A stretch of 34,485 bases of DNA from a virus. The notes below the pieces were generated by a model that searched no databases, was not told the origin of the DNA, and worked only from the letters and a program-made list of their open reading frames with translations. The stretch is from positions 1 through 34,485 of the IMG/VR virus record IMGVR_UViG_3300032235_000435. One strand, written 5' to 3'. Of this stretch, positions 10,290 to 25,153 are shown in pieces. The position numbers and the translations under genes were made by a program. Position 1 is the first letter of the stretch; every line of letters begins with the position of its first letter.

Positions 10290-10682
10290 ATGAGCGACGC
10301 GAGTAAACTCGTTCAGGTCTACGTCAAAATCCGTGACGCACGGGACCTTAAGAAAAAGCAGATGGAAGAAGAGATCGCCCAGCTCGAAGAGCAGATGGGC
10401 GCAGTAGAGCAAGAGCTGCTGGAAATCTGCAAGACCACTGGCCAAGACGGTGGCAAAACACAATTCGGGTCGTTCACACGATCTGTCAAAACACGCTACT
10501 GGACCAGCGACTGGGACAGTATGTACAAGTTCATCCGTGAGCATGATTCCCCCGAGCTGCTGGAGCGGCGAATTCACCAAGGCAACTTCAGTGAGTTCCT
10601 GCAACAAAACCCGGACGTCATGCCCGCAGGTGTAAATGTCGAGTCCCGCTACTCGATCACGGTCCGTAGGGCCACCAAGTAA
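10290..10682 (+). CDS. Coiled-coil replication-region protein
   Basis: The 130-residue protein has a long N-terminal coiled coil (about residues 10-50; KKKQMEEEIAQLEEQMGAVEQELLE), then a compact domain with a Trp-containing segment (RYWTSDWDSMYKFI) and a C-terminal strand ending SITVRRATK. The coiled coil plus small domain is reminiscent of Gam-like host-nuclease inhibitors, but I see no convincing Gam signature and do not assign it. GGCGG lies ahead of its ATG. Confidence 0.75.
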   Translation: MSDASKLVQVYVKIRDARDLKKKQMEEEIAQLEEQMGAVEQELLEICKTTGQDGGKTQFGSFTRSVKTRYWTSDWDSMYKFIREHDSPELLERRIHQGNFSEFLQQNPDVMPAGVNVESRYSITVRRATK

Positions 10683-14756: not shown

Positions 14757-14967
14757 GCCGCCGATCATCCACCTGATCGGGGTGGATTACTTCGTGCACT
14801 GGGACGCCCTGCTTGTCGGGGCGTCCTTCTTCCTACCTACCATTGCCACGACAGCTCAGGTGGTTGAGGTGCTTACGCCCATCGAGGAGGCACTTACTAT
14901 GACGTTTGCCGTACACACCCGCGTTGAATACGGGCGGTACGGGACGAGGGTTTGGCGGATTCAATAA
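14668..14967 (+). CDS. 99-residue hypothetical protein overlapping primase-helicase
   Basis: The frame starts 89 bases inside the primase-helicase gene, behind a near-perfect ribosome binding site (AGGAGG, 14657-14662, five bases before ATG). The product has ordinary composition, with a strand-rich centre (PPIIHLIGVDYFVHWDALLVG) and a C-terminal VEYGRYGTRVWRI. It is the last plus-strand gene; its stop overlaps the convergent giant gene. Function unknown. The strong binding site and protein-like composition support it. Confidence 0.75.
   Translation: MALPSGVTYSMELHLGSTKPRLSKVQTPPEPPIIHLIGVDYFVHWDALLVGASFFLPTIATTAQVVEVLTPIEEALTMTFAVHTRVEYGRYGTRVWRIQ
14802..14826 (+). terminator. Terminator-like hairpin inside the last plus-strand gene
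   Basis: A perfect 8-base-pair GC-rich stem (14802-14809 with 14819-14826) with a nine-base loop is followed by TTCTTCCT. It lies within the 99-residue gene and could terminate or attenuate the plus-strand transcript just before the convergent junction. The pyrimidine tract is weak and the element is also coding, so this is tentative. Confidence 0.3.
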
Positions 14968-17900
14968 CCGAGCGTTGCCTTGGCTTCGCGCAGCCAGCCG
15001 GTCATGTCAACTTCCATCTTGCGCAGCTCCTGCAGCTCCAGTGCCCGCTCTTCTTTGGACATCTCTGCGGCAGCGTCTGGGCTGTTGAGGTACTTGCGGT
15101 AAGCGCGGGTGCGTTCGAGCTGTTCCAGCGTCGAGTTGACTGCACTCTCCAGCATCAACACATCGGCGTTCTTCTCGGCGTAAGCTGCGGCCCGGTCGAG
15201 ATCGGTCTTGGCCAGCTCGTTGAGCGTGGCGTTGGCGCGGCCCACCTTTTCGCGGGTCTCGTAGAACTCGGTCATGCGGCGGGTGCCCACCGGGTCGTAC
15301 ATGTAGTTCGACAGCAGGGCCCACTTGTGCAGGGGGCGGTCCACACGGGTTGGGTTCAGCAGGGAGTCGGTCATTGCGACCAGCAGACCTGCCGACGAGC
15401 CGAAGTAGCCGTTGAGCGCGTTGTCCACGAGGATCGGAGACACCTTGTCCACACCGACCACATCCCGCGAGAAGTTGGCGATGGCGATGGCCAGCTCGGA
15501 CGTGTTGGATGCCCGGCGCAGGCTGGGGTCCTGCTGCTTCTGGTAGATGCCTTCCAGTTCGCGTCCAGTGAAGAACGAGTAGTTGGTCCACGCCTCCAGC
15601 AGTGGCTTGACCGCTTGTGGCACAGGCACCGTCCGTCCGACGTATTGCTCGAACATGTAGGTCAGGGCCGTGCGGGTTGCTTCCCATGCAGTCTGCTCTT
15701 CTGGGGTTCCTTGGCGGCGCATGTATTCGACGATGCGCTCGGGCACAACTTTGAACAAGGCACCCAGTTCGGTAGGCACCGGCAGCTTACCTACCCCCGG
15801 CAGAATCCAGTTGCTGTCCCGTGTACGCAGGTCCATCTCTTGGTATTCTTCGTCTTCACCGGCCATCAGTGCATACATAGAGCTGAGCGTCATGGCGATA
15901 GCGGCGCGGGTCATGAACATCTTGCGGGCTTGCGCACGCCCCACGGAGGAGCTGGAATCCTTACCCGATGCTGCACGGTACAGCACGTCCATACCTTGGA
16001 TGTAGGCGTTGAAGAACGGGATGGTCGTAACCAGCGCACCCACAGCGTCGCTCGCGCCACGGCGGCGGAAGTTGATGAATTCACGGGCACGGGTCTGTGC
16101 CAGCAGTTGGTCGCCGCCTTCTTTCAAAGTCTGCTCGTAAATCGCCTTACGGACAGCCAAGTCAGATGCGCGGGTAATGCCGTCCAGACGGTGCAGCAGG
16201 GTCTCAAACTTGCCCCGCTTCTTGTATCCCAAGTCCTTGAGGAGAGATACGGCAGGTTTGCCTGCCTCGAAGTCGTATTCGCCGGTAAGCCCCAGCCTGC
16301 CAAACTGCTTGACGGACGGATGCTGGATGCCGCGCAGTTCAGCGAACGCGATGCCCCCGAAGTTGGAGAGCGACATACGCAGCAGAGCGCCGGGGTTCTT
16401 CACACCCGAGGTCATGATGGCACGCTGGATATCGTCTGTCACCTGCTTGAGCGCGAAGGGCGGCAGTGCAGTCACGGACTTGCGCAGCACGTTGGAGAAC
16501 TTGCCCAGATTACGCAGCCAGCCTGCCTTCTGAGGGTTCATGTCCTTGAACGCCAGCACATCGTATTTGCTTGGCAGCTCCCAGTACATCATCTCGCCGT
16601 CGATGTAGCCACCCACTGCGTTGGCCTTCTTCTGGGTGTTGCGGCCCAAGAACTTGGCGTAGCCCAAATCCTCCAGACTGCGCAGGGTTTGCGTGTTGGC
16701 ATCGGACTTCATGGTCTGGCCAACCATCCAGCCAAGCGTGTTCAGGTAGTTCTCAAAGACGTTGCCAACGGGGCGTTGCTCGGAGCCCACCAGCTCTGGC
16801 AGCTTGCCCAGCTGGGCCAAGCCTTTGTTGCTGACCTTCTTGATTTTGCTGAACGCAGCGCTGAAGTCCTCGTCGCCAAGACGGTCGAACGGCACGTAGC
16901 CAACGGCATCTTTCCAAGCTTCCCCGGTTTCTTTGGTCAGGCGGCCGACGGCCACCATGTTGTCCACCATTGCAATACGCGACTCGTCCATCGCCTTGCT
17001 CATGGCCTGCAGGTCTGGGTCTGCGTTGTACTCGGCCACAAGCTGGTCGATCTCGGGGTCTTTGAGGTGAATCAGGAAGCTCGTGCCGTCTTCTCGGTTG
17101 GACCGACGCATCTCATTCAAGCGCACACCTTCGAGCACACGGCTGGCGATCTGGGTAGCACGCTCACGGTCGTACCCGTTCTTCTGACCCCATGCGTCGA
17201 TCAGGGCATACACCTCGGCAGGGGGACGCACACCGTTGATGCCTTGCACAACCCACAAGCCTGTTGCTGGGTCTTTGACCAGCCCGCCCACTTGGAAGTA
17301 TTCCAGCAGAGTCTTGGTGTAGTCCTGTGCCTGACGGTACAGGCCCATCGGGTTGAGCTTGCCCAGACTGTCACGCACGGCACCGTCAAACTGCTCGCGC
17401 AGGCGATGCTCGATTGTGGCAGCGGTATCCGCAACTTGCGTACGGAACTTGACGCCGTAGCTCGGCTCGGCCGGAGACATACCCGCTTTGAACGACGGGA
17501 TCAGTGCCTTGAGGCCAGTCTTCTGGTCGGGGTCCAGCGGACCCATGCTGTCGATCAGGGACTCTGTGGAGAACGATACGGAGAACTGATCCTTGACCCG
17601 CGCTGGTGCAGCTTTCACGGCCACAGTTGGTCGGAAGTCTGCGGGGCCAAGCTTGTTCAGGTAGTCGGCAACTGACTTAGCCGGTGGGAACTTGCGGCCT
17701 GTTACGACGGCAACAAGGTCGCGCATCTTCTGCGCCAGCTTGGAGAAGAACTTATCGGCAATGCTGAGCGGCTTCTCGTTTGTCGTGGCCCAACGGGATA
17801 CGTTGTCAGCAAACCACTCCCCAAATCCGGTCCAGTAGCTATCAAAGTTTTGCAGGGTCTTGGCGGCAGGGTCGTCCGCCCGCCCCGCTGCTTCCAATGC

Positions 17901-20846
17901 AGCGACGTTGATTTGCGCATCCTCACGGTTACGCAGCATTTCGATAAGCTCACGAGAAGTGGCACCTTTTGCCTTCTTGTGCCACGCAAGGTACTCGTCC
18001 GCGATTGCTTTGCGCGTCTCCGCATCGGCGTTGTTGTAGGCTTCTTTCTCGATGATGTGCCCGATCTCGTGCGCCAAAATTTCAACTCTGGCATTTTCAG
18101 AGAGCGACGGCTTCAGATAAACCGCGTAGGTTTTCTCGTCGGTGCCGAAAGGACCTGCAGACCCATTGAGCTGCGCAGACTTGAATTGCGAAGGACGCGC
18201 GAACGGGCCGTACAGTTTGTTGGCGTCAACAAAGTCGGACTGCGCTGCGTCATCCGCCGTATAAATAAACAACTTGATGTCGCCCAGTCCAAGAGACCGC
18301 AGCAGATTGGCAGCGTAGCCTTCAAGGGCCGGGCCGACCGATGGAGCGGCCACGACCGACTTACCGTCAGTAAAGGGTCCATCCGGATTGGCAGTATGCA
18401 ATTCAGCTTCGGCCTGCCGGGCTACATCCGCAGCGGCCATAAGGCGGGTCACCTGCTGGGGCGTAATCCAAGCCGGTTTCGTCTTGCTCTCGACCGGGTA
18501 GAACGCTTGAGTGCCGTCACGGTGCATCGGGAAGTACACCACCTCCCCGTACGCATTCACAGCGCGCACCAGCGCAACTTCGCCATCCTCATAAACGAGG
18601 CGTTGGTTACCCAGCAAACTTTTAGCCGCCCACGTAGAGGGGACAGACAATTCGGGCGCGGCCTCTTTGGTGAAGTCCAGTTCGCCTTGACGCGCATCTC
18701 GGGCAGCGGGAGCGGCTTCCTCGGCTTCAGGCTCCCCACGTTGACGTTCAGCGTACTCAAGCTCCTCACGCTTGCTCATGGGGAACAGCATGGCCTGCGG
18801 ACCCCGCAGGATTTCTTTCTGGCCCTCCTCCATGCCGAACTCTGACGTGCCGATGGGCTCGTACAGCTTCTCAGGGATAGGCGGCGTAGGTTGCGCTGCA
18901 CGGGGAGCTGCAGGGGCGGCAGGGGGCGCAGTTCGACCACGACCCCCCGCGCCTTGTTGGCGGGCCAAAGCGGCTGCCATTGCTGCAGCTTCAGCTTTGC
19001 GTGCGGCTTCCTCCTCAGCAGTTTCTACTGCAGCGGGCTCGACTCCTTGAGCTTCAGCTCGCGGCTCAGCAGGCTGTCCAGCAGGTACCAATCCGCGTCC
19101 GTCAGGTGTGACAGGGGCTGCGGCGGGTCCGGCCACTCCGGCTCCGGGTTCAGGAACGACGGCGGCTGCAGGCTCGCTAGGAACTCCCACGCTTGGCTCA
19201 CCAGCTCGGGGCTCATCTCGCTGCTCAGGCGCAGGCTTTTTGGCGGTGGGCGGGACATTGGTAGGCTCCTTGAATGTGGCTGGACGGGGTGCCAGCAGCT
19301 CGCGCAGGATTTTGGCACGCTTGCCCTTGCCTTCAATCAGGGTCGGGTCAGCGGTGACCAGTGCTTGTACTTCCGCCGAGGTCTTGCCGACGACGTTTTG
19401 CTCAAACCAACCACGCGTGGTGCTCGGGGCGATACCCGTGTCCTCCACGTCCTTCATGGTCAACTCGCCAGCACGGCCGCGCAGCGGAAGTTTGTATTGG
19501 TATGGGCCCGTGCGGGCATAGGGCGGCACAGGGGTAGGCTCACCGGGGGCTGCGGCTTCTTCGGCAGTGGGCTCAATGGCAGCAGGCGCGCCACCGAACA
19601 GATCGCCCTGCGTGCGGGCTTTGACCTCATCGGGCATGGTGAGCAGGTCTGGGGCTTCGGCCAGCGCGGGGAAGCGCTTGCGGCCTTCGGCATCTTGGCG
19701 TGCTTGCTCGGCATCGACTTCAGCCTGTGCGCGAAGCCCGGCGATGTTCATCTCTTCGTAACTGCGAATCTGCTCGCTCAGATCAGCCACGCGCTGCTCG
19801 ACCTCTGGGGTCGGTGGCTGCTGGCGCAGGCGCTCCCTCTCCAGATACAGCTGCTCAACTTCACGCTGATAGTCCAGACCGAGGTCCATCTGACCTGTGG
19901 GGGTAGCGGCAGCGGGTTCGGTGGGAGGTACGGGCGCTGCGGGAGCAACCGGGGCTCGACCCACGCCCATCTCGGCAGGGGTAAACATCTCACCTTGGGT
20001 ACCCGCTGGGGTTTCGGTAGCCGGAGGTTGGGTAGGCTGCGCACCCTTGGCGCGTCGGCCGAGCGCCAAATCCATAAGGCCCTGCACGATAGCGCCGGTT
20101 GCGCCGCCGTAGGCAGCTTGCTCCCCCAGACCTTCAATGAGTGCTTGCTCAGGCTTGTATACGCCACGGGCAATCAGGTTTTGGGCGAAGCCCGATGCAG
20201 CTTCTTGGGCGGCTTCTTCGCCACCGGCAATCATGGCCCGCTTGACAGCCTCAACACCTGCAGCTTTGGACGCCGTGGGGATACGGGACAGAATACGGAT
20301 GGGCGCGAATGCTTCCAATGCGCCGGGGATGGTGCCTAGAGCGGTGGCTGTACCGCGTTGATCGGCAGTAGCGCCCTCTTGTTCAGCACGCGTGCGGGCT
20401 TCTCCAGCGCCTGCGCCAACACCTAAACCAACGGCAGCAGCACGCCCGGCCAAGCCGAAAGGACCTGCGAGCAGGAACGGGGCTGTCGAGCCGACAGCTT
20501 CACTGAGCTTACGGGCAACGGTATCTTCGTACCCCGGAGCGGCTTCAAATGGCTTCTTGGCAGCGCCAGCCACAGAGGCGATCTTGGCTCGTGCGGACTT
20601 CTCCAACTCCTCTGGCAAGAGGGCGGAGGCACCAGTCGCTGCGGATTCCAGCAGGCCGACAGCACCGGGAACCAAACCTTTGAAAGCTTCTTTAACTTGG
20701 CCCCCGATCGTGGGCTCGGGGGCAGGAGGTTTATCGCCTTGAGCGGCAACCCCTTGGATGTACTGAGCGAGCTTCTTGGCCCCCTCCTTGTCTCCCGCAG
20801 CGTCAGCGTTGCGGAGTGCTTGGTAAAGGGCGTTCAAGTCGGCCAT
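14961..20846 (-). CDS. Giant polyvalent virion protein with metallopeptidase domain
   Basis: The 1961-residue protein is the largest in the window. It starts with a short helical segment and a Gly/Ala-rich hydrophobic region (about 110-150), followed by Pro/Ala-rich linkers (about 270-330 and 530-680). A zincin-like domain spans about 840-1080, with HEIGH at 926-930 and a downstream EWFAD (E1010, D1014) that can supply the third ligand. The C-terminal part (about 1450-1860) resembles the LPD38 domain of large polyvalent proteins, which phages package and inject with DNA to act on the new host (Iyer and colleagues described the class). A hydrophobic segment near 1640 may be membrane active. 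AAGGA precedes ATG 20846. I infer a packaged, injected protein; substrate unknown. Confidence 0.88.
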   Translation of the reverse strand: MADLNALYQALRNADAAGDKEGAKKLAQYIQGVAAQGDKPPAPEPTIGGQVKEAFKGLVPGAVGLLESAATGASALLPEELEKSARAKIASVAGAAKKPFEAAPGYEDTVARKLSEAVGSTAPFLLAGPFGLAGRAAAVGLGVGAGAGEARTRAEQEGATADQRGTATALGTIPGALEAFAPIRILSRIPTASKAAGVEAVKRAMIAGGEEAAQEAASGFAQNLIARGVYKPEQALIEGLGEQAAYGGATGAIVQGLMDLALGRRAKGAQPTQPPATETPAGTQGEMFTPAEMGVGRAPVAPAAPVPPTEPAAATPTGQMDLGLDYQREVEQLYLERERLRQQPPTPEVEQRVADLSEQIRSYEEMNIAGLRAQAEVDAEQARQDAEGRKRFPALAEAPDLLTMPDEVKARTQGDLFGGAPAAIEPTAEEAAAPGEPTPVPPYARTGPYQYKLPLRGRAGELTMKDVEDTGIAPSTTRGWFEQNVVGKTSAEVQALVTADPTLIEGKGKRAKILRELLAPRPATFKEPTNVPPTAKKPAPEQRDEPRAGEPSVGVPSEPAAAVVPEPGAGVAGPAAAPVTPDGRGLVPAGQPAEPRAEAQGVEPAAVETAEEEAARKAEAAAMAAALARQQGAGGRGRTAPPAAPAAPRAAQPTPPIPEKLYEPIGTSEFGMEEGQKEILRGPQAMLFPMSKREELEYAERQRGEPEAEEAAPAARDARQGELDFTKEAAPELSVPSTWAAKSLLGNQRLVYEDGEVALVRAVNAYGEVVYFPMHRDGTQAFYPVESKTKPAWITPQQVTRLMAAADVARQAEAELHTANPDGPFTDGKSVVAAPSVGPALEGYAANLLRSLGLGDIKLFIYTADDAAQSDFVDANKLYGPFARPSQFKSAQLNGSAGPFGTDEKTYAVYLKPSLSENARVEILAHEIGHIIEKEAYNNADAETRKAIADEYLAWHKKAKGATSRELIEMLRNREDAQINVAALEAAGRADDPAAKTLQNFDSYWTGFGEWFADNVSRWATTNEKPLSIADKFFSKLAQKMRDLVAVVTGRKFPPAKSVADYLNKLGPADFRPTVAVKAAPARVKDQFSVSFSTESLIDSMGPLDPDQKTGLKALIPSFKAGMSPAEPSYGVKFRTQVADTAATIEHRLREQFDGAVRDSLGKLNPMGLYRQAQDYTKTLLEYFQVGGLVKDPATGLWVVQGINGVRPPAEVYALIDAWGQKNGYDRERATQIASRVLEGVRLNEMRRSNREDGTSFLIHLKDPEIDQLVAEYNADPDLQAMSKAMDESRIAMVDNMVAVGRLTKETGEAWKDAVGYVPFDRLGDEDFSAAFSKIKKVSNKGLAQLGKLPELVGSEQRPVGNVFENYLNTLGWMVGQTMKSDANTQTLRSLEDLGYAKFLGRNTQKKANAVGGYIDGEMMYWELPSKYDVLAFKDMNPQKAGWLRNLGKFSNVLRKSVTALPPFALKQVTDDIQRAIMTSGVKNPGALLRMSLSNFGGIAFAELRGIQHPSVKQFGRLGLTGEYDFEAGKPAVSLLKDLGYKKRGKFETLLHRLDGITRASDLAVRKAIYEQTLKEGGDQLLAQTRAREFINFRRRGASDAVGALVTTIPFFNAYIQGMDVLYRAASGKDSSSSVGRAQARKMFMTRAAIAMTLSSMYALMAGEDEEYQEMDLRTRDSNWILPGVGKLPVPTELGALFKVVPERIVEYMRRQGTPEEQTAWEATRTALTYMFEQYVGRTVPVPQAVKPLLEAWTNYSFFTGRELEGIYQKQQDPSLRRASNTSELAIAIANFSRDVVGVDKVSPILVDNALNGYFGSSAGLLVAMTDSLLNPTRVDRPLHKWALLSNYMYDPVGTRRMTEFYETREKVGRANATLNELAKTDLDRAAAYAEKNADVLMLESAVNSTLEQLERTRAYRKYLNSPDAAAEMSKEERALELQELRKMEVDMTGWLREAKATLGY

Positions 20847-20856
20847 TGCTCAGTCC

Positions 20857-22515
20857 TTATTTGCCCCCGTACTTGTTCAGGAGGGCTTGCACGTCAGAAG
20901 GGATTCCGCCGGGGCCTGCTGCGCCGGGGGTTCCCGTAATTGTACCGAGACCAGCCATATTGACAAGCGCGGCCTCAACCCGGTCCAGTTTTGCCTGTAC
21001 CGCCGCACGCTCAGTTTTATTGAACGTCGTTTTAAGTTGGTCGGCATACTGCTTCTGCAAGGCTTTGAGCTCGCTGAGTGTCTGGCGGTCATTTACATTG
21101 CCGCCCCTATCCCGCATCGCGTCAACCTGCATCTTTGTCCGAGCAGTTTGCCCCTGCTGCTCAACTTGAGTCTTGTAAATGGCAGCAGCAATATCAGCAT
21201 CCTTGCCCGTAATGTCCATGATGCCCTTGACGCCGACTTCACGCGCTTTGTCCAGACGGGTCGCGGCTTTGTCCTCGAAGGTTTGGGCGGATTTCCAGTC
21301 CTCAAGCTTTTCGGCACGGCGAGCGTTTTCAATATCGGCAAAAGCTTTCTGGCGCTCTTTGGCGGCTTTCTTCATGTCCTTCATGGCAGAGGTGTACTCG
21401 TCCAGCCCAGTCAAAGCGCCCTTGCTGATGTTCTCGAACGCGCGGGGAGACGTGCCGCCCATCATGGCCAAACCCGCCTTAAAGATTGCAACGCCAGTGG
21501 CCTCGTCTCGCTCTTTGCCAGCACGGCCTTCTTCGCCCTGCAGCATTTCCTCATACTTGGAATAAGCTTCGCCAGTAGGCTTGCCCTCTTTGCGGCGTTC
21601 GCGTGCTTCGGCGACAGAAGCCTTTGTGTCTTTTACAAACTCTTTGAGAGCGTCGGTCTGCGCATTAGCGTCAAAAAACTGACCAGCGAGCGTTTTCGCG
21701 TCCTGTACGGACGGAGCCTTAGCAGCGGCGGGAGCAGGAGATTTCTGCAGGGCAGCAGCTTCGGGCGTAGCGCCAAGCCCTGCGGGGGCTTTGGGCGGCA
21801 GGGGAGTTTTAACGGACGCAATACTGGGCTGGCTACCTGCCATGAGGCGGCGGTCCATACCGCTTAAATTGTCTGCCGCAGGTGCAGCGGCAGGAGCGGC
21901 GGGCCGAGGAGCAGTGGGGGCAATCCCCATATTACGCAAAATGCGCTCGTTCATGACGCCGCCCGCATTAGGGCGAGCTGCCAATTCCTCGTCTGAAAGT
22001 TGACTGGCCCCCTCGGTGAAGTAGTTCCGAATACGAGGGCCCAAGTTTTCAAGAAACGTGTTGGCTGCGCCCACGCCGCTGTCGGCACCCAAAGGACGGC
22101 TTTGAAGGGCTACACCGGCTTGCTGCAGCAGGGCGTTTTCTTGTGGAGTCCGTTGGGCTGGTGGCTTTTGCAAAATGCGTTGCACATCCCCAGTCAACGA
22201 ACCGCCAGCCTGATAGCGCTCAACATCCCCACCATCAGCAAACGCCACAATGCCACCACCGGCAAAGTTCATTTCTTCGGTAGGCAGCGCATCGACGCCA
22301 CCGGCTGGGGACATCTCCATTAGTGCTTGGTCAGCGACTTTAGGCTGTGCTTGTTGCTGCGGTGCTGCAGCTGTACGCATCTGTTTACGGCGTCGGGATT
22401 CCGACAAAGCCAGCGCCATGATGTAAGGGTCTTCCTTGTTCATCATGGCGTACTGCTGCAGCGCCTGATCGGGCATCTGCGCCAAGCGGTTCGTGAGCTG
22501 CTCAATGTTCATCAT
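20857..22515 (-). CDS. Gly-rich coiled-coil virion protein
   Basis: The 552-residue protein has a helical N-terminus (QMPDQALQQYAMM), a motif FAGGGIVAFADGG (about 84-96) of a type common in environmental phage structural proteins, Pro/Ala-rich linkers (about 200-270), a long charged helical stretch (about 275-420), and a C-terminal helical segment. This looks like an internal or ejection protein. It lies directly upstream of the giant gene in the same transcript, and the giant gene's ribosome binding site overlaps its stop. GGGGGAG precedes ATG 22515 by nine bases; ATG 22512 is also possible. Confidence 0.82.
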   Translation of the reverse strand: MMNIEQLTNRLAQMPDQALQQYAMMNKEDPYIMALALSESRRRKQMRTAAAPQQQAQPKVADQALMEMSPAGGVDALPTEEMNFAGGGIVAFADGGDVERYQAGGSLTGDVQRILQKPPAQRTPQENALLQQAGVALQSRPLGADSGVGAANTFLENLGPRIRNYFTEGASQLSDEELAARPNAGGVMNERILRNMGIAPTAPRPAAPAAAPAADNLSGMDRRLMAGSQPSIASVKTPLPPKAPAGLGATPEAAALQKSPAPAAAKAPSVQDAKTLAGQFFDANAQTDALKEFVKDTKASVAEARERRKEGKPTGEAYSKYEEMLQGEEGRAGKERDEATGVAIFKAGLAMMGGTSPRAFENISKGALTGLDEYTSAMKDMKKAAKERQKAFADIENARRAEKLEDWKSAQTFEDKAATRLDKAREVGVKGIMDITGKDADIAAAIYKTQVEQQGQTARTKMQVDAMRDRGGNVNDRQTLSELKALQKQYADQLKTTFNKTERAAVQAKLDRVEAALVNMAGLGTITGTPGAAGPGGIPSDVQALLNKYGGK

Positions 22516-22521
22516 AATGCG

Positions 22522-23667
22522 TTACTCCCCCAACATCTCGGCAACCGCCAAATCCATCAGACCACCGCCCGCAGCTTTTGTAGTGCCGCCTTCGGCAAAC
22601 ATCCCCGCGCGGCTTGCGCCGTACAACGCAGTGCCCGCACCAACCAACTGAGACGCTGCACTGGGGGGCGCTTGGTACATGGACTGCACAGTGCCCATTG
22701 GCGTGCCGCGCAGGATGTTCGACATGAACTCCAACTGCTGGTACGGGTAGCGCTGCTGCGCTGCAAAGTTCTGCGCTTCGGCGTTGATGAGAGCCTGCTG
22801 CTGAGCCTGCTGCTGAGCGCCAAACTGGTTCTGCAGACCGAGGATGTCTTTCTGCTGACCGAACTCTTGCTGACCAAACTGGCCGAGTTGGCCTGCGCCT
22901 TGCAGTGCCGTCTGCAAACCCTGCATACCAAGACCTGCGCCATACTGGCGTGACTGCTCGCGCAGTTGCTGCTCGGTGTTGAATTGTTGCTGGGCGCGTT
23001 CAAAGGCACTTTGCAGACCGCGAGACTGAATATCCCCAAGCTGCGTACCCAGATTGCGCTGACGCTCGGCTTCGACGATGGCCTGACGAGAACCGCCAAA
23101 CGCACCGCGCCCTACAGCTTGAGCCTGATCGGACTGACGCTGGATTTCTGAAGCACGCACAGCCTCGCGCATCTGAGGCTCCAAAGCCTGCTGGATAAAC
23201 GGCGACATGTACATGCCCGCCTGCTGACCAAATTGGCCAGTGGCGTAGGGGTCATACCCGGTGCCCAGAGCGCGTTGTGCCGCAGCCCCCGCCAAACCAG
23301 TAGCCATGCCCAGTTGGGGAGAGGTCTGCATACCACCCGCAGTTCGGTAAGCCTGCTGCTGCAAGGGGTCCATGCCAGCAACCACTTTGCTGGGGTCAAA
23401 CCCAATCTGTCTGCCCGACGCATCCTTGATACCGCCAAAGGACTGGAACGGGTTTTGGTTGATGTCAGTTACAGACTCAGCAAGGCCCAACTGCTTTTGC
23501 GCAGTAGGTTTGGCCCACTCCGGCAGGTCAACGACTTGAGTTTGCGTAGCGCTTCCGCCGCCACCCCCGCCACCATAAACGATGCGCCCGCCTTCTTTGC
23601 GGGTTACGCTTTCGCCAAGAGGCTCGCCAAACTCATACAGTTCCCGGCGTGAATAGCTCGTTTTCAT
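22522..23667 (-). CDS. Gln-rich virion protein with Gly motifs
   Basis: The 381-residue product starts MKTSYSRREL at ATG 23667, preceded by GAGGG seven bases away; a longer in-frame start at 23769 would run over 100 bases into the neighbouring gene and is rejected. An early GGRIVYGGGGGGG stretch is followed by a Gln/Ala-rich helical body (about 100-330, many Q-Q and Q-A pairs) and a C-terminal FAEGG and AAGGGLMDLAVAEML. Gln-rich helical proteins of this type occur among podovirus internal core proteins. It is probably a structural or ejection protein. Confidence 0.82.
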   Translation of the reverse strand: MKTSYSRRELYEFGEPLGESVTRKEGGRIVYGGGGGGGSATQTQVVDLPEWAKPTAQKQLGLAESVTDINQNPFQSFGGIKDASGRQIGFDPSKVVAGMDPLQQQAYRTAGGMQTSPQLGMATGLAGAAAQRALGTGYDPYATGQFGQQAGMYMSPFIQQALEPQMREAVRASEIQRQSDQAQAVGRGAFGGSRQAIVEAERQRNLGTQLGDIQSRGLQSAFERAQQQFNTEQQLREQSRQYGAGLGMQGLQTALQGAGQLGQFGQQEFGQQKDILGLQNQFGAQQQAQQQALINAEAQNFAAQQRYPYQQLEFMSNILRGTPMGTVQSMYQAPPSAASQLVGAGTALYGASRAGMFAEGGTTKAAGGGLMDLAVAEMLGE

Positions 23668-24071
23668 AGCTTGACCCTCATTACTTGGTGGGTGTTTTCC
23701 ATACCCATTTTCTTGTACATATCGACCAGTGTGCCTTTGGCCCAGCACTGCGCGGTCGTTGCTCCGCAACGGCGCATAAATTCTTTGGCTTCGTCAAACA
23801 CGTAGTCCCGCACAACGCCTTTTCCGCCCATGAGCTGGACGTGAGCAATACGCTCTACCGGGTCGTCAATGAGCTCGACGGTGCACGCGCCCGTGATGCC
23901 TTCGTTCGGCTCTTCCCACACAAGCAGATGCACGCGCCCTGTACGGATGCTGTACTCAATGAACTGTGGGTTGTACGCCTCGGGATCGAGGTCGATCGCT
24001 TTCTTCAACAACGGAAATGCAATCGGCCAGACGGTCGGTAAAGTGCTAGGGTGTACGTGGTGCAACGGCAT
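23664..24071 (-). CDS. GNAT-like protein (T7 gp13-like)
   Basis: The 135-residue protein resembles small acetyltransferase-fold phage proteins such as T7 gp13, an internal virion or assembly protein. Visible features are a helix PLLKKAIDLDPEAY, strand pairs around RVHLLVWEEPNEGITGACTVEL, a strand AHVQLMGGKG in the position of the acetyl-CoA-binding strand, and a C-terminal helix MYKKMGMENT with a final strand. A canonical acetyl-CoA P-loop (RxxGxG/A) is not clear, so activity is uncertain. It lies among virion genes, fitting a gp13-like role. The stop overlaps the downstream gene's start by four bases. Confidence 0.7.
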   Translation of the reverse strand: MPLHHVHPSTLPTVWPIAFPLLKKAIDLDPEAYNPQFIEYSIRTGRVHLLVWEEPNEGITGACTVELIDDPVERIAHVQLMGGKGVVRDYVFDEAKEFMRRCGATTAQCWAKGTLVDMYKKMGMENTHQVMRVKL

Positions 24072-24073
24072 GA

Positions 24074-25153
24074 TTACGCGGGGAGAAGTTTCTCGGCGCG
24101 GCTGTTGACTGCTACGCGGTCTTTGCCTGTGGTTTTGCCCCGAGCCTTTTGAATGCGGTCCATCATGGCGTACAGCTTGCGGGCACCCGCATCGGTCGAG
24201 CCGTTGCCTAGCTCAGAAACAATACGAGCAGGCACAACAAACTCACCATCAGCAAGACGCGCTGGGCGCTTGTTCGCAATCGTTGCAGGAATGGAGTCAG
24301 AAACACCATCGCCGGGACCTTTCAAAAGACGGCCACCGTCGGAGTAGTCGCCAAGGTGAGATACGCCGCCACCAGCAGCAAACATCTGACCGCCGTTGGC
24401 CATCATGGTTTCCATACGGTTTTGGTCGGACATAGCCTCAATCGGGCCACCCGCTGCCATCATTGGCGTGGTGGGGGCAAGCATATCCCGTGGCCTGCTG
24501 CCGGGCGTTACGCGAGTGTATGTTTGGTTGTTAGGGTTGTATTCGTACTCGTACGGGTTCGGGCCACCGCCGTCGTACGGCTTTGCCGCATCGGGCTGCA
24601 TCATGGGGGCGGCTGCAGCGAGTCCGGTTTTCATAAGGCCCGAAGCCCCACCCATGCCGGTGGCCTCTGCGGTTTTTGTTGCTGCGTTGCCCATGAAGGC
24701 ACTAAGACCTTCTTTGGTGCCAAGCGAACCCAAACCCCGCCCTGCTGCGGCAAGATTGCTGGAAAAAGTAGCCGGGGCAGCACCTGCGGCACCAGCCCCC
24801 GCTGCGGTCAAGCCACCAGCCAAACCAGCACCGCCAAATGCACCCATACCGGCCATCAAGCCTTTTTCCAAACTGCCTGTACGGAGACCTTCAACGCCGC
24901 CAACAAGCCCTGCCGCCATCAGAGGGCCAACGCCCGGAATAAACGACAGGCCCGCACCGATCAGCGTAGGCAGAATTTTCTTGAGGAAGTTGGCTTCGGG
25001 TAAGCCCGTATCTGGGTTCAGCGTCAGTGTGCCGCCGCCAGCTCTGGCAAGTGCTTGGAGACCCGAGACTTCCTCTGGAGCCATGTGCACCAGCATGGTG
25101 TCGCCTTTACGCCCACGGCTGGCAAGGTGTTGTGCAGCAAGTTCTAGGCTCAT
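24074..25153 (-). CDS. Gly/Ala-rich virion protein with LADGEFVVPA motif
   Basis: The 359-residue protein has an N-terminal MLVHMAPEEVSGLQALARAGGG (about 20-41), a long Gly/Ala-rich hydrophobic stretch (about 60-180), a linker, and a C-terminal conserved-looking block: MMANGGQMFAAGGG, GPGDGVSDSIPATI and LADGEFVVPARIVSELGNG, then a basic tail. Similar C-terminal blocks are common in environmental podo- and siphovirus structural proteins. A membrane-interacting ejection or tail role is plausible. The start is an ATGA overlap with the upstream gene. Confidence 0.82.
   Translation of the reverse strand: MSLELAAQHLASRGRKGDTMLVHMAPEEVSGLQALARAGGGTLTLNPDTGLPEANFLKKILPTLIGAGLSFIPGVGPLMAAGLVGGVEGLRTGSLEKGLMAGMGAFGGAGLAGGLTAAGAGAAGAAPATFSSNLAAAGRGLGSLGTKEGLSAFMGNAATKTAEATGMGGASGLMKTGLAAAAPMMQPDAAKPYDGGGPNPYEYEYNPNNQTYTRVTPGSRPRDMLAPTTPMMAAGGPIEAMSDQNRMETMMANGGQMFAAGGGVSHLGDYSDGGRLLKGPGDGVSDSIPATIANKRPARLADGEFVVPARIVSELGNGSTDAGARKLYAMMDRIQKARGKTTGKDRVAVNSRAEKLLPA

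What the first reader, a model, noticed from the sequence alone, without database searches (positions are those of the whole stretch)
14961..20846. 1961-residue polyvalent protein with an intact HEIGH zincin motif
Giant multi-domain phage proteins with a C-terminal LPD38-like region are thought to be packaged and injected. Here the metallopeptidase ligands are all present (H926, E927, H930, E1010), embedded between disordered linkers. A protease delivered at infection could cut a host defence or envelope protein, or process other virion proteins. The LPD38 assignment is from recalled family character; the zinc motif is seen directly.
Basis: partly seen in the sequence, partly recalled or inferred. 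Interest (0 to 1): 0.75.

Follow-up and report, generated by a model that had tools for sequence, protein, structure and literature searches.

The report
Swappable zincin protein with clamp-binding-like motifs
A freshwater phage makes a giant protein, probably packed in the virus particle and injected into the bacterium, that carries an intact but interchangeable protein-cutting domain and a chain of short motifs that look like docking sites for the host's DNA-replication clamp, a combination I did not find described before.

Summary
In detail: 14961-20846 is one 1961-aa ORF on the minus strand with HEIGH at 926-930 and E1010. HEIGH's H, E, G, H, Y1004 and E1010 are invariant in 52 homologous domains, AlphaFold gives a confident zincin-like fold (pLDDT 89), and LPD38 is real (95.5 bits). 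It is a phage-type polyvalent protein, last gene of a podovirus-like late operon near a DNA-ejection gene; a distant relative, gp25 of E. coli phage PTXU04, is required for infection. Delivery by the virion is inferred, not shown.

(1) The zincin sits in an exchange slot: 67 of 67 related proteins carry a zincin motif there, but of four kinds, exchanged at least 22 times between conserved flanks; one pair is 94-96% identical in flanking DNA but holds unrelated cassettes. (2) The "disordered" linker holds six motifs (QGEMF, QMDLGL, QGDLF, QYKLPL, QAMLF, QGELDF) that fit the bacterial sliding-clamp-binding consensus: QxxLF-type motifs occur 84 times against 3.9 expected across 59 proteins, at that spacing only. 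Best reading: an injected, clamp-tethered effector with interchangeable protease heads. Clamp binding, protease activity and injection all need experiments.

The parts
14961..20846 (-). 1961-aa polyvalent protein gene (whole ORF), last gene of the minus-strand late operon
20067..20846 (-). N-terminal region, residues 1-260: Gly/Ala-rich, membrane- or ejection-type by composition (function inferred)
   Evidence: sequence; weak non-significant match to virion RNA polymerase family phrog_2206 at 144-291, E 0.19
18645..20066 (-). Linker, residues 261-734, A/P/E/Q-rich, carrying the six clamp-binding-like motifs
19983..19997 (-). clamp-binding-like motif 1, QGEMF (284-288)
19875..19892 (-). clamp-binding-like motif 2, QMDLGL (319-324)
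19596..19610 (-). clamp-binding-like motif 3, QGDLF (413-417)
19482..19499 (-). clamp-binding-like motif 4, QYKLPL (450-455)
18783..18797 (-). clamp-binding-like motif 5, QAMLF (684-688)
18672..18689 (-). clamp-binding-like motif 6, QGELDF (720-725); in the L002/L015 pair the cassette junction falls directly after this motif
17580..18644 (-). Exchange slot, residues 735-1089: zincin metallopeptidase domain, type A
18057..18071 (-). HEIGH zinc-binding/catalytic motif, residues 926-930
17817..17819 (-). E1010, expected third zinc ligand, invariant in 52 domains
14964..17549 (-). C-terminal core, residues 1100-1961, conserved helical module containing LPD38
15357..15854 (-). LPD38 (PF18857), residues 1665-1830
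20857..22515 (-). 552-aa upstream neighbour, no family match
22522..23769 (-). 415-aa neighbour, 'DNA ejection protein' family phrog_4287
   Evidence: E 1.5e-10; related to the 294-aa gene of phage DSL-LC04
25464..27419 (-). 651-aa virion structural / stabilization protein

Best explanation
The gene encodes a phage-type polyvalent protein, most likely packaged in the head of a short-tailed phage and delivered with the DNA. The C-terminal LPD38 core and the N-terminal Gly/Ala-rich region are the conserved chassis (packaging and ejection; inferred). The central slot carries an intact zincin metallopeptidase that is swapped as a cassette between related phages while a zincin of some kind is always kept. 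The linker upstream carries six short motifs that fit the bacterial sliding-clamp-binding consensus; after entry they would tether the protein, or the piece bearing the protease, to the host DnaN clamp at the replisome, where the protease cuts host proteins (counter-defence or takeover) and the clamp itself may be occupied. Shown here: the ORF, conservation of the zinc residues, a zincin-type model, cassette exchange, a non-random motif array. Inferred: injection, peptidase activity, DnaN binding, host target.
For: Zincin: H, E, G, H of HEIGH, Y1004 and E1010 invariant in 52 domains; AF2 pLDDT 88.7, pTM 0.85, with the zincin core (helix, three strands, HEIGH helix, second helix with E1010); the best 21 rows of the VIA second look are nearly all zincin-fold structures (lethal-factor-type, YbeY, PPEP-1, PprI), though all Z < 8. 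Slot: 67 of 67 proteins have HExxH (57) or HExxxH (10) there; four kinds A/B/C/D on a tree of the C-terminal core need at least 22 changes where 3 would suffice; L002 and L015 are 94.2% and 95.9% identical in DNA on either side of unrelated cassettes; L003 and L078 add an ADP-ribosyltransferase-type sequence in the slot (PF18760, 53.7 bits in L003; L078 by eye). Motifs: six in window linker 261-740, 0.23 expected, none of 10,000 shuffles as high; in 59 linkers Q..[LMI]F 84 observed, 3.9 expected, one residue more or less of spacing gives 0-5, and Q is the only first residue strongly enriched (9.2-fold); at aligned slots the free positions change (up to 15 spellings) while Q, L/M and F/L stay. 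The consensus (Gln at 1, Leu/Met at 4, hydrophobic at 5 or 6; pentameric and hexameric forms) is from PMC11139829. No other candidate gene of the window has such an array and no phage-encoded clamp was found in ten records. Delivery: last gene of the late operon, DNA-ejection family two genes upstream, same place as the 'DNA transfer protein' of DSL-LC04. Relevance: PTXU04 gp25, a distant LPD38 relative, is a required 'Fit' gene, and it is in the list of genes whose expression was toxic or interfered with infection (PMC11879866).
Against: No binding, peptidase or virion data for any member. Position 2 of the motifs is often Gly, while known clamp ligands prefer a large aliphatic there (PMC11139829), so single affinities may be low. 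Motifs 5 and 6 are conserved only in part of the family (15 of 22 and 11 of 27 ungapped rows), and anchor columns are only modestly more conserved than the rest of the linker (0.57 against 0.45). Distant LPD38 relatives in isolates lack the array, so it is not needed for delivery in general. Foldseek gave no significant PDB match for the zincin model.
Confidence: 0.5

Rival explanations
1. The zincin is an autoprocessing protease: it cuts the giant protein itself (before packaging, in the head, or after entry) and so releases the working pieces, as proposed for polyvalent proteins in general. The linker motifs may still bind the clamp.
For: Proposed in PMC5512222 from phage P1 DdrB, which is processed before packaging. 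A zincin is always present (67 of 67), as expected if every member needs cutting. Long unstructured linkers are natural cleavage sites.
Against: Four different kinds of zincin sit between flanks that are otherwise conserved (94-96% DNA identity in L002/L015), so different proteases would have to share the same flanking cut sites or carry their sites inside the cassette. PMC5512222 also notes that N4 vRNAP, with an MPTase domain, is packaged uncut.
Confidence: 0.35
2. The QxxLF/QxxLxL repeats are a phage-internal short motif, for example docking sites for a capsid, portal or ejection protein or a packaging signal, and have nothing to do with the host clamp.
For: The array is specific to this phage group and its near kin and absent from distant LPD38 proteins; position 2 is often Gly. 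Arrays of one motif in a disordered linker can serve packing in the head.
Against: The motifs occur in both forms known for clamp ligands (five and six residues), with Leu/Met at 4 and Phe/Leu at the end, including consensus spellings such as QLDLF in relatives. A single phage-internal partner would not predict this double form.
Confidence: 0.3
3. The zincin domain is a structural or regulatory module without peptidase activity (for example a zinc-stabilised packing domain).
For: Peptidase activity is untested; the region with the MPTase domain in N4 vRNAP is needed for encapsidation (PMC5512222).
Against: Catalytic Glu927 and all ligands are invariant in 52 domains down to 24% identity, and all four kinds keep HExxH or HExxxH; a scaffold would be expected to lose them in some lineages.
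Confidence: 0.12

Closest known systems
Phage-type polyvalent proteins with zincin-like MPTase and LPD38 (Iyer et al. 2017, PMC5512222)
   Same: Giant multi-domain protein in late phage genes, LPD38 in the C-terminal part, zincin with HExxH and downstream Glu, HExxxH variants in relatives, ADP-ribosyltransferase partner in some members.
   Different: The sliding-clamp-binding-like motif array is not mentioned there (no 'clamp' or 'DnaN' in the main text); the repeated exchange of zincin kinds in one slot was measured here.
PTXU04 gp25 (Escherichia phage PTXU04, PMC11879866)
   Same: LPD38 (133 bits), a zincin-like HEIIVH motif, gene of a podovirus, 2197 aa; C-terminal similarity by sequence and by predicted structure.
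   Different: HExxxH form; no clamp-motif array (1 motif, 1.8 expected); only 24% identity over the matched part.
Phage anti-DnaN proteins (Twort gp168, G1 gp240; PMC3594737, PMC11139829)
   Same: Phage protein aimed at the host sliding clamp (in our case inferred).
   Different: They are listed among phage early proteins (stage not determined for these two); Twort GP168 binds the DNA channel of the clamp rather than the peptide pocket (PMC11139829). Here the motif would use the peptide pocket and the protein would arrive with the virion.
IS transposases that bind the beta clamp through QLxLF motifs (PMC4549789)
   Same: A mobile element's protein using the host clamp through a short Q..LF motif.
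   Different: [quoted passage not shown] no protease, no virion.
N4 virion RNA polymerase and P1 DdrB (as described in PMC5512222)
   Same: Giant packaged phage proteins with an MPTase domain.
   Different: Carry an RNA polymerase or ParB-like domain; whether they have a core or motif array like this was not tested here.

Membership tests
Phage-type polyvalent protein (PMC5512222) | Large multi-domain protein with large-polyvalent-protein-associated domain(s) | tested here: met
   1961 aa; LPD38 PF18857 95.5 bits against cut-off 27
Phage-type polyvalent protein (PMC5512222) | Disparate enzymatic domains in one polypeptide | tested here: inconclusive
   Only one enzymatic domain (zincin) recognised in the window protein; close relative L003 adds ART-PolyVal PF18760, 53.7 bits
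Phage-type polyvalent protein (PMC5512222) | Encoded among late virion genes | tested here: met
   Same strand and run of genes as DNA-ejection, structural, endolysin, spanin and tail-fibre genes
Phage-type polyvalent protein (PMC5512222) | Packaged in the virion and delivered at infection | not testable with these tools
   Needs virion mass spectrometry; context only
Zincin-like metallopeptidase (MPTase) | HExxH plus downstream Glu | tested here: met
   H926, E927, H930, E1010 invariant in 52 domains
Zincin-like metallopeptidase (MPTase) | Zincin core fold (N-terminal helix, three-stranded sheet, HExxH helix, Glu helix) | tested here: met
   AF2 elements helix 105-117, strands 124-129, 161-165, 172-177, helix 183-201 with HEIGH, helix 274-288 with Glu, pLDDT 88.7; zincin structures fill the top of the VIA list, Z up to 7.5
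Zincin-like metallopeptidase (MPTase) | Zinc-dependent peptidase activity | not testable with these tools
   Needs purified protein
Peptidase_M78 (PF06114) | Score above the curated cut-off | tested here: not met
   16.1 bits against 22 for the window; 18.0 for L010. Not filed as M78
Sliding-clamp ligand (clamp-binding motif) | Gln at 1, Leu/Met at 4, hydrophobic at 5 or 6, in an accessible segment | tested here: met
   Six motifs in the A/P/E/Q-rich linker; enrichment and spacing controls; consensus from PMC11139829
Sliding-clamp ligand (clamp-binding motif) | Large aliphatic at position 2 | tested here: inconclusive
   Window motifs have G, M, G, Y, A, G at position 2; relatives also have L, I, Q, S, T
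Sliding-clamp ligand (clamp-binding motif) | Direct binding to DnaN | not testable with these tools
   No complex prediction or assay available here

The most novel reading that the evidence does not exclude
A virion-delivered effector that docks on the host sliding clamp through a multivalent array of clamp-binding motifs and carries an exchangeable protease (or protease plus ADP-ribosyltransferase) head, so that different proteases are aimed at the host replisome in the first moments of infection.
Probability: 0.4. Interest if true: 0.85.

Novelty: new variant of a known kind. Interest (0 to 1): 0.62.

Why it matters
If the motifs bind DnaN, this would be a phage protein that uses an array of clamp-binding motifs and could act before any phage gene is expressed; it would also be a natural example of multivalent clamp docking, whose effect is called not understood in PMC11139829. 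The exchange slot gives a natural set of zincin swaps in a constant chassis, which makes the open question 'autoprocessing or host cutting?' directly testable.

Tried and rejected
Relatives in bacterial genomes by the C-terminal core and in plasmids: none, so no prophage context and no host name. The ejection gene found no isolate match by tblastn. Sequence search of solved structures with the whole protein: nothing significant. Foldseek against PDB with the zincin model: no match below E 0.2. C-terminal core against PDB: all Z under 8, mostly helical chance; one row is an entry titled 'core proteins' (7eyb_I, Z 5.6, 191 residues, 7.0 A), too weak to use. Considered and rejected: that the zincin is a Pfam M78 member (below cut-off); that the motif array is a composition artefact (shuffles, spacing, reversed motif and other first residues); that some relatives lost the zincin (the ten without HExxH have HExxxH); that the array is needed by all LPD38 proteins (absent in four isolates). 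A literature search for a polyvalent protein with clamp binding found none; the library is partial.
Full report
What is there. The ORF at 14961-20846 is on the minus strand, 1961 aa, with HEIGH at 926-930 and E1010 as described; chance would give 0.004 such HExxH motifs in this protein. It lies in a 34,485-base virus record of IMG/VR. It is the last gene of a minus-strand late operon that runs tail fibre, unknown genes, Rz-like spanin, GH19 endolysin, a 651-aa structural/stabilization protein, unknowns, a DNA-ejection family protein, a 552-aa unknown and then this gene, facing the plus-strand replication genes. Phage DSL-LC04 has the same order (stabilization protein E 2.4e-110, two further genes recognisable), and a 'DNA transfer protein' without sequence similarity holds the place of our gene.

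Domains. Residues 1-260 are Gly/Ala-rich; 261-734 are an A/P/E/Q-rich linker; 735-1089 are the zincin; 1100-1961 are a conserved helical core containing LPD38 (95.5 bits). In 52 aligned zincin domains H926, E927, G929 and H930, together with Y1004, E1010, W1011, F1012, A1013 and F1033-F1034, never change. AlphaFold gives pLDDT 88.7 and pTM 0.85 and the expected zincin order of elements. A second look by VIA-align puts zincin structures of several families at the top (lethal-factor-type entries Z 7.5, YbeY 6.6, PPEP-1 6.4, PprI 5.9), all under Z 8, so the fold class is supported but no particular family is. Pfam M78 is below its cut-off.

An exchange slot. Of 72 non-redundant relatives in viral contigs with the C-terminal core, 67 reach far enough to show the slot, and all 67 carry HExxH (57) or HExxxH (10) there. 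The zincins are of four kinds as sorted here: A (HE[ILMF]GH, the window's), B (HEL[LIV]H), C (mostly HE[ASV]xH) and D (HEVGAH, HEVAAH). On a tree of the core alone the four labels need at least 22 changes where 3 would be the minimum (quick tree, some long branches). The window's nearest core is L003, which carries kind B plus an ADP-ribosyltransferase domain (PF18760, 53.7 bits). L002 and L015 are 94.2% and 95.9% identical in DNA on the two sides of entirely different cassettes; the upstream junction follows the QPELDF motif. So the catalytic head is replaced again and again while its presence is kept.

A clamp-motif array. The linker of the window holds QGEMF, QMDLGL, QGDLF, QYKLPL, QAMLF and QGELDF. 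Six are observed where 0.23 are expected and none of 10,000 shuffles reaches six. Over 59 linkers (34,004 residues), Q..[LMI]F occurs 84 times against 3.9 expected; with one residue less or more between Q and L it occurs 5 and 0 times; Q..[LMI].[FL] occurs 125 times against 18.3; among 17 tested first residues only Q is strongly enriched (9.2-fold, next 2.7). At aligned slots 1-4, 25-33 of 31-35 ungapped rows keep the motif while its free positions vary; slots 5 and 6 are weaker. The known consensus for bacterial clamp ligands is Gln at 1, a large aliphatic at 2, Leu/Met at 4 and a hydrophobic at 5 or 6, in pentameric and hexameric forms; flanks tend to be acidic (PMC11139829), and acidic residues are mildly enriched next to our motifs (19% against 14%). 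No other candidate gene in the window has an array. Four LPD38 proteins of isolates lack it, so it belongs to this phage group; some zincin-A proteins without this core also have it. No clamp gene was found in ten phage records, so the partner would be the host's DnaN.

How it may work. Packaged late and delivered with the DNA (inferred from place and kin), the protein would dock on host clamps through its linker and bring the protease to the replisome, where host proteins are cut; occupying the clamp could itself slow host replication. The alternative, autoprocessing, is the published general proposal for such zincins (PMC5512222). The cassette swaps between otherwise conserved flanks speak somewhat for targets outside the protein, but do not exclude sites carried in the cassette. 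The distant relative PTXU04 gp25 is needed for infection and is in the list of genes whose expression was toxic or interfered with infection (PMC11879866), which fits an active effector but also a structural ejection protein.

What is known and what is new. Phage polyvalent proteins with zincins and LPD38 are known (PMC5512222), so membership there is not new. The motif array and the measured exchange slot were not found in the literature held. None of the functional steps has been tested at the bench.

Noticed in passing
L003 and L078, slot upstream of the C-terminal core: ADP-ribosyltransferase sequence follows the zincin in the exchange slot (PF18760, 53.7 bits in L003; L078 by eye).
   Followed up: partly
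window 19287-19463 (-), residues 462-520 and on to 527: A conserved stretch (TMKDVEDTGIAPSTTRGWFEQNVVGKT...) lies inside the linker right after motif QYKLPL; its positions are among the most conserved of the linker and match no Pfam family.
   Followed up: no
window 10290-10682 (+): Matches phrog_13900 'minor head protein' (E 1e-18) although it lies among plus-strand replication genes.
   Followed up: no
window 22242-24382 (-): Three neighbouring late genes share short Gly-rich FAxGG-type motifs (GGGIVAFADGG, MFAEGG, MFAAGGG).
   Followed up: no
L105, L108, L109, L153, L156: Zincin-A proteins without this LPD38 core also carry clamp-motif-like arrays (4-6 motifs against 0.7-1.3 expected).
   Followed up: partly
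L175 (Acinetobacter sp. CFCC 10889), L173 (Legionella MAG), L174 (Endozoicomonas MAG): Relatives of the zincin-A domain occur on contigs assigned to gammaproteobacterial genomes, possibly prophages.
   Followed up: no
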